From positions 1-41,611 of the forward strand of contig CAJEYI010000008.1 in NCBI GenBank assembly GCA_903994795.1: a stretch of DNA of 41,611 nt. The letters are read 5' to 3'. Of the stretch, positions 12,322 through 41,611 are shown in pieces. How positions within the stretch are numbered: the first letter of the stretch is position 1; each line of letters starts with the position of its first letter. Source of the DNA: an uncultured bacterium (GTDB taxonomy: Bacteria > Patescibacteriota > Minisyncoccia > Phycocordibacterales > Phycocordibacteraceae). The position numbers and the translations under genes were made by a program. The notes beneath the pieces were generated by a model. The model saw only the letters and a list, made by a program, of their open reading frames with translations. It was not told the origin of the DNA and did no database searches.

Positions 12322-12642
12322 TTGCGGGGGCCGGAATCGAACCGGCGTCTGGAGGTTATGCTTACCACTACAATTTTCATTGCTCGCACTTCGATTTGTG
12401 GTCTGGACTATGCCTTCATCCTGGCAGAATTGCTTCTATCTGGATGCCTACCGTCTAGTCTCTACACCTTCTCTTTCGTGTATTTGTATACACAAGAGAG
12501 CTTGGCTCGGCATTGCCGTTCGTCTACTTGTAACGGTAGACGTTAGGGTTTCACCGAATTTGGCAGGTAATCTTACGCGCAATTGCTCGCGCGCACGCCC
12601 GAATTGTTCAAGCCTCCCGAGGTACCTCTCCTCTACCCCGCT
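12322..12642 (-). tRNA. Initiator-type tRNA-Met(CAU) split by a group I intron (exons 12611-12642 and 12322-12360)
   Basis: Reverse strand: AGCGGGG-TA-GAGG-AGAGGTA-CCTC-G-GGAGG-CT[intron]CATAA-CCTCC-AGAC-GCCGG-TTCGATT-CCGGC-CCCCGCA-A. Unpaired 1:72 (A/A), A11:U24 and a 3' half like E. coli fMet (CCGGCCCCCGCAA) suggest an initiator. CCA not encoded. Confidence 0.85.
12361..12610 (-). ncRNA. Group I self-splicing intron (~250 nt) in the tRNA anticodon loop after U33
   Basis: Reverse strand has P AAATTCGGTGAAACC, Q AATGCCGAGCCAAGC, R GAGACTAGACGG, S AAGGCATAGTCCAGA elements; P1 GCU(U)GAA-CAA-UUCGGGC with U.G at the splice site; terminal omega-G at 12361. Confidence 0.88.
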
Positions 12643-12767
12643 ATGTTCTATCTAGGCATCTACTGTATAAATGCCTACTCCCAAGAGTGTAAGACACATT
12701 TTGATAAAGAGCAATATTAGCTATTGGAACCAGTATATAGTACAATATACCTATACATAGTACTTTT

Positions 12768-39103: not shown

Positions 39104-39106
39104 AAA

Positions 39107-39160
39107 CTCAGAGAAACTTTAGAACTATTTTATAAATATTTCATCTCGTTTCCGTATACT
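39107..39160 (+). promoter_or_regulatory. Repeated upstream motif copy 2 (CTCAGAGAAACTTTAGAAC-N29-TATACT)
   Basis: Aligns with copies at 1735 and 41103. Confidence 0.65.
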
Positions 39161-39166
39161 TTTGTA

Positions 39167-39808
39167 ATGGGGACTAATACACACAAAAATACACAAAGAA
39201 GACAAATACTTAAGCCGATACCCAGTGAAGCACTTGCAGAATTTGTAGGAATTATGATGGGCGATGGCGGAATGAGTAAATATCAAGCGACGATTAGTCT
39301 GAACCACATTACTGATTTAGAATATTCCTCATTTGTTTCTAATCTTATAACCGAATTATTTGAATACACTCCGAGCATTTACCACAAACCAGAGAAATCT
39401 GTTCTGGATATTGTTATGTCTCGAATAGAAATTGTAGACTTCCTACATACACTTGGGTTACCTATCGGTGACAAAATACGGCAACATTTAGATATTCCGG
39501 ACTGGATTAAGCAAAAGTCCACATTTACAATCGCCTGCATTCGAGGACTTATTGATACAGACGGTAGTATTTTTGCTCACACATATATATCCAAAGGAAG
39601 AAACTATAGCTACAAGAAACTTTCTTTTACAAGCGCCTCTGAGTCCCTAGTACATTCTGTATATTCTCTTCTTTCAGAACTAGGTTTTCATCCGAGAATT
39701 AGCCATAACGGTAAAGATGTTCGTCTCGAAAGCGTAGCTGACATGAAAAGGTATTTTGAGGTAATTAGTAGTCATAATCCGAAACATTTGAATAGATACG
39801 CTTCATGA
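39167..39808 (+). CDS. LAGLIDADG homing endonuclease
   Basis: Two motifs: LAEFVGIMMGDGGM and CIRGLIDTDGSIF. Confidence 0.88.
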   Translation: MGTNTHKNTQRRQILKPIPSEALAEFVGIMMGDGGMSKYQATISLNHITDLEYSSFVSNLITELFEYTPSIYHKPEKSVLDIVMSRIEIVDFLHTLGLPIGDKIRQHLDIPDWIKQKSTFTIACIRGLIDTDGSIFAHTYISKGRNYSYKKLSFTSASESLVHSVYSLLSELGFHPRISHNGKDVRLESVADMKRYFEVISSHNPKHLNRYAS

Positions 39809-39826
39809 CATATAGTGCTATGACAC

Positions 39827-39913
39827 GGAGAGGTGGGTGAGTGGCCGAAACCAGCACACTGCTAACGTGCCAGGGGATAAAACCCCTCGAGGGTTCGAAT
39901 CCCTCCCTCTCCG
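39827..39913 (+). tRNA. tRNA-Ser(GCU)
   Basis: GGAGAGG acceptor, D-arm, CTGCTAA anticodon loop, long variable arm CAGGGGATAAAACCCCT, T-arm GAGGGTTCGAATCCCTC, CCTCTCC-G. Confidence 0.93.
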
Positions 39914-39937
39914 CCCGATTGGTAATTGCGATAGTTA

Positions 39938-40632: not shown

Positions 40633-40854
40633 CTACTTGGATACCCAAGGTGTTGGAACACCATTCTCAATAACCTGAATTTGCACAGGTGAATCACTAA
40701 CCGAGTGGTCTGCCGTAAACGTAATGTTGCCATTTGGTGTACTGAATGAATTCCCTGCAATATATGAAGCTGCTCGTGAAGCATCAGTTGAGTTCGCTAG
40801 AGCACTGGCCATAACTAAGTCAGCTGATAAATACTTTACAGCTGTGTATGTTAT
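40633..40854 (-). CDS. C-terminal fragment, possibly a branched-chain amino-acid-type ABC substrate-binding protein; 5' part cut by adapter
   Basis: LVMASALANSTDASRAASYIAGNSFSTPNGNITFTADHSVSDSPVQIQVIENGVPTPW resembles Peripla_BP_6 C-termini; the MLFRS start in the ORF track is adapter-encoded. Confidence 0.5.
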   Translation of the reverse strand: MTYTAVKYLSADLVMASALANSTDASRAASYIAGNSFSTPNGNITFTADHSVSDSPVQIQVIENGVPTPWVSK

Positions 40855-40920
40855 AGATCGGAAGAGCACACGTCTGAACTCCAGTCACGGAGCGTCATCG
40901 CGTATGCCGTCTTCTGCGTG
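40855..40920 (+). other. Illumina TruSeq adapter with index (sequencing artifact)
   Basis: AGATCGGAAGAGCACACGTCTGAACTCCAGTCAC + GGAGCGTC + ATCgCGTATGCCGTCTTCTGCgTG followed by A7; two mismatches to the canonical adapter. Confidence 0.98.
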
Positions 40921-40926
40921 AAAAAA

Positions 40927-41076
40927 ATGGAGCATGTATGGGATATGGCAAGTGACCCTTTCTCAAACACAATAGAGTGTCATGTACTTAGCCTACGAAA
41001 GAAGATTGGTGATACTTCAAAGAAGTGCTTTATCCAGACTGTGCCAGGTCGTGGATATAAAATTGATACACCATAA
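40927..41076 (+). CDS. C-terminal fragment of an OmpR/PhoB-type winged-helix response regulator (5' part missing)
   Basis: MEHVWDMASDPFSNTIECHVLSLRKKIGDTSKKCFIQTVPGRGYKIDTP(stop). Confidence 0.85.
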   Translation: MEHVWDMASDPFSNTIECHVLSLRKKIGDTSKKCFIQTVPGRGYKIDTP

Positions 41077-41102
41077 AACATATACTTATTAAATGTCAAA
41101 AA

Positions 41103-41156
41103 CTCAGAAATACTTTAGAACGAGTTTAGTTATTTTTTAACTACTTTCCTTATCAT
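41103..41156 (+). promoter_or_regulatory. Repeated upstream motif copy 3 (CTCAGAAATACTTTAGAAC-N29-TATCAT)
   Basis: Aligns with copies at 1735 and 39107. Confidence 0.65.
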
Positions 41157-41212
41157 TGTAAGTGAAGAGTAGTTCATTCTTCACAGAACCCAGACCATGA
41201 AAGGATCGTGCT

Positions 41213-41611
41213 GTGGAAAGTCCAGTTAGTTCTTTAGTTGTTCTTTCGAGGAAAGTACTCCCTCGCGTACCAGAAAGTACCATCGTCTACAGGCTAATTC
41301 CAAAATATACTGATTTGAGTTTCTACTATGAACGGACTGATAGAAATATCGGGTGGATCACTCATGACGAGCAAGATATATTGCGAAGCTCTGTAGTCGG
41401 GATTGCGGGTACTGGTGGAATGGGAGGTCTTCTTGCGTCTACCCTTCTTCGGGCAGGAGTGGGTGAAATTAGGATCGCGGACTGCGAGATGTTTGATGCT
41501 TCGAATATTAATCGTCAATTTGCAGCAACTAGGTCTACGATTGGAAAGTCGAAAGCATTCGAAACAGCCCGGTTCTTACGTGGCATTTCAGATGACACAA
41601 CAATTGCTGTG
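41213..41611 (+). CDS. ThiF/MoeB/HesA-family adenylyltransferase (partial, runs off the right edge)
   Basis: GTG start; VVGIAGTGGMGGLLASTLLRAGVGEIRIADCEMFDASNINRQFAA is an E1-like signature. Open-ended, so absent from the ORF track. Confidence 0.88.
   Translation, partial: MESPVSSLVVLSRKVLPRVPESTIVYRLIPKYTDLSFYYERTDRNIGWITHDEQDILRSSVVGIAGTGGMGGLLASTLLRAGVGEIRIADCEMFDASNINRQFAATRSTIGKSKAFETARFLRGISDDTTIAV

What the first reader, a model, noticed from the sequence alone, without database searches (positions are those of the whole stretch)
40855..40927. Illumina TruSeq adapter embedded in the assembly: chimeric join
A complete index adapter (index GGAGCGTC, two mismatches in the P7 tail) followed by A7 separates two truncated genes. 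Automated ORFs here carry the adapter-derived peptides RKSTRLNSSH and LFRS. Anything inferred from synteny across 40854/40928 is unsafe, and deposited proteins from this locus would be artifacts.
Basis: seen in the sequence. Interest (0 to 1): 0.7.

Follow-up and report, generated by a model that had tools for sequence, protein, structure and literature searches.

The report
Sequencing-adapter scar joining two contigs
A 66-base Illumina library adapter was left in this genome assembly and glues together two stretches of one tiny bacterium's chromosome that are not really neighbours; it is a laboratory and assembly artefact, not biology.

Summary
Confirmed artefact. Window 40855-40920 is an Illumina TruSeq Read-1/i7 adapter: 34/34 fixed bases exact, index GGAGCGTC, P7 tail 22/24, then A7. 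The assembly (a Patescibacteria genome, 902 kb, 66 contigs) holds eight exact adapter cores where 0.027 are expected by chance. Seven sit at contig ends; only this one is internal. All readable indexes form one pair (i7 GGAGCGTC, i5 side CACGGACG): one incompletely trimmed library.

(1) The damage begins at about 40816, not 40855: 40816-40854 is the same gene turned around, a fold-back library chimera, also seen at two other adapter sites of this genome. (2) The true neighbours were found without reads. The left gene (Peripla_BP_6 binding protein) continues on contig C42 (91-bp overlap, 1 mismatch). The right gene (OmpR-type response regulator) begins on C31 (117-bp overlap, 3 mismatches), and a same-genus genome keeps the implied order MltG-regulator-ThiF intact. 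(3) So both flanks are native; only their adjacency is false.

Interest as biology is low. In passing: the misplaced tail carries one of at least 18 copies of a promoter-like element heading dprA, radC, a T2SSE ATPase and toxin genes.

The parts
40633..40815 (-). Native 3' end of a Peripla_BP_6 substrate-binding protein gene; residues 1-343 of the protein are on contig C42
   Evidence: 40725-40815 matches C42 with 1 mismatch in 91; Pfam PF13458 on the C42 part
40816..40854 (+). Fold-back chimera: the same gene's sequence in inverted orientation, directly before the adapter
   Evidence: 40813-40854 is identical (42/42) to C42 3619-3660 on the opposite strand
40855..40888 (+). Illumina TruSeq Read-1 (i7-side) adapter, 34/34
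   Evidence: the same 34-mer at the ends of C3 and C61
40889..40896 (+). i7 index GGAGCGTC
   Evidence: same index on C61, and its first six bases on C3 where the contig ends
40897..40920 (+). P7 tail, 22/24, two T-to-G differences
   Evidence: C61 has the unaltered first nine bases ATCTCGTAT
40921..40927 (+). A7 run, probably read-through past P7; point of the in-silico join
   Evidence: native sequence here is GATAATGG on C31, so only the last two A's fit
40926..41076 (+). Native C-terminal part of an OmpR-type response regulator (Trans_reg_C); the N-terminal part is on contig C31
   Evidence: 40926-41042 matches C31 with 3 mismatches in 117; PF00486
41213..41611 (+). Native start of a ThiF-family gene, cut by the contig end
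   Evidence: PF00899; regulator-ThiF order intact in G018

Best explanation
A short library insert (about 130 bp), itself a fold-back chimera of the binding-protein gene, was read through into the i7 adapter, the P7 tail and probably the poly-T linker of the flow-cell oligo, which gives the A run. The adapter was not trimmed. The assembler kept this tip and joined it in silico at the A run to a tip from the response-regulator gene. Shown here: the adapter's identity, the shared index pair, the concentration at contig ends, the fold-back, and the true partner of each flank. Inferred: the insert length, the origin of the A run, the two T-to-G differences as base-call errors, and the assembler step that made the join.
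For: Adapter 34/34 with index and P7 tail in the right order. Eight exact cores in the genome against 0.027 expected, seven of them at contig ends. One index pair at all sites. Left partner C42 and right partner C31 by overlap; both end in the i5-side adapter at the edge of the overlap. Fold-back at this site and at C6/C61 and C50/C62. G018 keeps MltG-regulator-ThiF on one 193-kb contig. Published class of artefact (PMC11536531; PMC10908179).
Against: No raw reads were available. The overlaps are not perfect (1 in 91 and 3 in 117 mismatches), which may be strain variation or errors. Only two A's are shared at the join, so the assembler step is unexplained.
Confidence: 0.97

Rival explanations
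1. Wet-lab concatemer: a finished library molecule was physically ligated to a second genomic fragment, so the join existed in the tube before sequencing.
For: The adapter is full length, including the P7 end, and the library does make chimeric molecules (fold-backs).
Against: The A run after P7 is expected from reading into the flow-cell oligo, not from a ligated molecule (own knowledge). The other seven sites simply end in adapter at a contig end.
Confidence: 0.03
2. A biological element or a chance resemblance to the adapter.
For: A 13-nt core with up to two mismatches is expected 0.87 times in a window of this size.
Against: The match is exact over 34 nt with index and P7 tail in the right order, and recurs at seven contig ends with one index pair. 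The 34-mer is in only one other of 380 sampled genomes of the phylum, again at a contig end.
Confidence: 0.001
3. The right flank (40928-41611) is contamination from another organism.
For: It has no long near-identical match elsewhere and differs from C31 at 3 of 117 bases.
Against: 97% identity to C31 of the same bin; it carries a repeat found 18 times in this genome and not in 33 same-genus genomes; gene order conserved in same-genus G018.
Confidence: 0.03

Closest known systems
Illumina adapter contamination of microbial genome databases (Moeller et al. 2024, PMC11536531)
   Same: Exact TruSeq core plus Read-1- or Read-2-specific extension, concentrated at contig ends, splitting contigs whose trimmed ends overlap
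   Different: This copy is internal, about 0.7 kb from the contig end, outside the 300-base zone that the published trimming rule checks, and it joins two unrelated loci
Inverted-repeat chimeric reads from library preparation (PDSM model, Chen et al. 2024, PMC10908179)
   Same: A segment lying between imperfect inverted repeats appears reverse-complemented at the end of a read
   Different: Described there as false variants in human DNA; here it is carried into a bacterial assembly next to an adapter. Whether shearing or enzymes made it cannot be told

Membership tests
Untrimmed TruSeq adapter read-through | Adapter core plus read-specific extension, index and P7 tail in order | tested here: met
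   34/34, index, 22/24
Untrimmed TruSeq adapter read-through | Same library index at all sites of the assembly | tested here: met
   GGAGCGTC on the i7 side, CACGGACG on the i5 side
Untrimmed TruSeq adapter read-through | More adapter copies than chance, concentrated at contig ends | tested here: met
   8 against 0.027 expected; 7 of 8 terminal
Untrimmed TruSeq adapter read-through | Contigs carrying adapters overlap once the adapters are set aside | tested here: met
   C8/C42 91 bp, C31/C8 tail 117 bp; C6/C61 and C50/C62 share 41-53 and 46-47 bp; no partner found for C3
Untrimmed TruSeq adapter read-through | Raw reads end in adapter at the site and no read pair spans it | not testable with these tools
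   no reads held
Fold-back (inverted-repeat) chimeric insert | Fragment end is the reverse complement of adjacent native sequence, bounded by inverted repeats | tested here: met
   40813-40854 inverted 42/42 against C42; native arms AACATACACAGCTG and AACTAAGTCAGCTG agree at 10 of 14 (from the sequences)
Fold-back (inverted-repeat) chimeric insert | Recurs at other fragment ends of the library | tested here: met
   C6/C61 and C50/C62, with 14- and 12-nt perfect arms next to the adapter; not seen at C3 and C31

The most novel reading that the evidence does not exclude
Nothing novel is left open for the adapter itself. The most novel reading of its surroundings: the misplaced tail carries one of at least 18 copies of a lineage-specific promoter (TTYAG-like half-sites every 10-11 bp, a -10-like hexamer, and often a start codon just behind it) that coordinates dprA, radC, a T2SSE-family ATPase, a Pif1-like helicase, toxins and other genes, perhaps a competence or stress regulon of a Patescibacterium run by a response regulator.
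Probability: 0.3. Interest if true: 0.6.

Novelty: not a real feature. Interest (0 to 1): 0.1.

Why it matters
It keeps a false gene neighbourhood and false proteins out of comparative work. It shows that an adapter can also be buried inside a contig, beyond the zone that a published end-trimming rule checks, and that the correct neighbours can be recovered from the assembly and one relative without reads.

Tried and rejected
Chance match: rejected. Real insertion: rejected by the shared index pair at eight sites. Foreign right flank: rejected by C31, the genome-specific repeat and G018 synteny. Clean truncation at 40854: rejected, the last 39 bp are inverted. Gene order of the left gene in relatives led nowhere: no close orthologue of the binding protein in 33 same-genus genomes, only roughly 26-33% identical relatives in two. 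A full-text search for the peptide RKSTRLNSSH found no paper.

Full report
What was claimed.

Check of the observation. The sequence matches the Read-1/i7 adapter at all 34 fixed bases, followed by GGAGCGTC, a P7 tail at 22 of 24, and A7. Both tail mismatches read T as G, as weak late base calls on a two-colour instrument could (inference). The named peptides are present: ORF 40724-40921 (+) ends ...YVIDRKSTRLNSSHGASSRMPSSA, and ORF 40633-40869 (-) begins MLFRS.

Not an isolated event. The window is the whole of contig C8 of a 902,262-base genome in 66 contigs. The exact 13-nt adapter core occurs eight times in it against 0.027 expected: at the ends of C3, C6, C31, C42, C50, C61 and C62, and inside C8. 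C3, C8 and C61 carry the i7-side adapter with GGAGCGTC (first six bases on C3, where the contig ends). C6, C31, C42, C50 and C62 carry the i5-side adapter with CACGGACG. One dual-indexed, incompletely trimmed library explains all. Of 380 other genomes sampled from the phylum only one has the 34-mer, also at a contig end.

Left flank. The minus-strand gene at 40633-40815 is the end of a Peripla_BP_6 substrate-binding protein; residues 1-343 are on C42. Window 40725-40815 and C42 differ at one base in 91. From 40816 the two part, and 40813-40854 is identical, 42 of 42, to C42 3619-3660 on the opposite strand. The window therefore turns back on itself just before the adapter. The native bounding sequences, AACATACACAGCTG and the reverse complement of CAGCTGACTTAGTT, form an imperfect inverted repeat. 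Fold-backs of the same kind lie at the C6/C61 and C50/C62 ends, with perfect 14- and 12-nt arms. This fits the inverted-repeat chimeric reads described for library preparation (PMC10908179). The adapter boundary of C42 maps to window 40725, so an insert of 40725-40854 (130 bp) is plausible (inference).

Right flank. Window 40926-41042 matches the end of C31 with 3 differences in 117. C31 supplies the receiver domain and the first part of the DNA-binding domain of an OmpR-type response regulator; the window supplies the rest. Two of the three differences put Cys in the window where C31 has Tyr and Arg, so the window copy may hold errors. In same-genus genome G018 the order MltG-regulator-ThiF runs unbroken on a 193-kb contig; this is the order obtained by placing the window's tail after C31. 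The tail is native and only misplaced.

How the join arose. A run of A's after P7 is the usual sign of reading into the linker of the flow-cell oligo (own knowledge), so the join to the regulator sequence is most likely computational. The native sequence before the regulator segment is GATAATGG, so only two A's are shared. Which assembler step bridged this is not known.

Comparison with what is known. Adapter contamination concentrated at contig ends, breaking contigs that can be merged after trimming, is described for many microbial genomes (PMC11536531). The present case is of that class, with one unusual trait: an internal copy about 0.7 kb from the contig end, beyond the 300-base zone that the study's rule checks.

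Organism. The GatA-like amidase in the window is up to 68% identical to Kaiserbacteria and other Parcubacteria records, so the genome is of the Patescibacteria.

Side observation. Window 41101-41117, behind the regulator gene, is one of 18 copies in this genome of AACTCAGAAANACTTTA with at most one mismatch; the reversed control gives none, and 33 other same-genus genomes give none. G034 (same genus, not in that sample) has six at up to two mismatches, against one for the control. In 19 aligned copies, including one on C10 with two mismatches, TTYAG-like half-sites recur every 10-11 bp, a TANNNT hexamer lies at offset 50 or 51 in 15 of 19, and in about half a start codon follows at offset 58-63. 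Downstream genes, taken mechanically as the longest ORF starting within 400 bp, include DprA, RadC, a T2SSE-family ATPase, a Pif1-like helicase, VanY, two Gp49-family proteins, a PemK-like toxin, two LAGLIDADG proteins, ThiF, HSP70 and a class I tRNA synthetase. The protein that binds the element is not identified, and no control set of promoters was run. One literature search turned up no description, which is weak evidence of novelty.

Noticed in passing
window 41101-41143 and 39105-39150; 16 further places in G000: Dispersed promoter-like element: TTYAG-like half-sites every 10-11 bp, a TANNNT hexamer at a fixed distance in 15 of 19 copies, often a start codon right behind it; heads dprA, radC, a T2SSE ATPase, toxin, LAGLIDADG and other genes. 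Looks like an operator array of an OmpR/PhoB-type regulator or a lineage-specific promoter.
   Followed up: partly
window 12383-12679 (-): Group I intron match in Rfam (RF00028, 71.8 bits); neither its host gene nor its splicing was examined.
   Followed up: no
window 39167-39808 and 39826-39916: LAGLIDADG-domain ORF with a copy of the promoter-like element directly in front, next to a tRNA-Ser(gct) gene.
   Followed up: no
contigs C6/C61 and C50/C62 of G000 (L027/L011 and L025/L026): Two more contig breaks with fold-back plus adapter ends; the contigs of each pair share about 40-50 bp and probably belong together.
   Followed up: partly
L033 5-38 (start of contig C193 of genome G362): Another genome of the phylum with the same 34-nt adapter at a contig end.
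   Followed up: no
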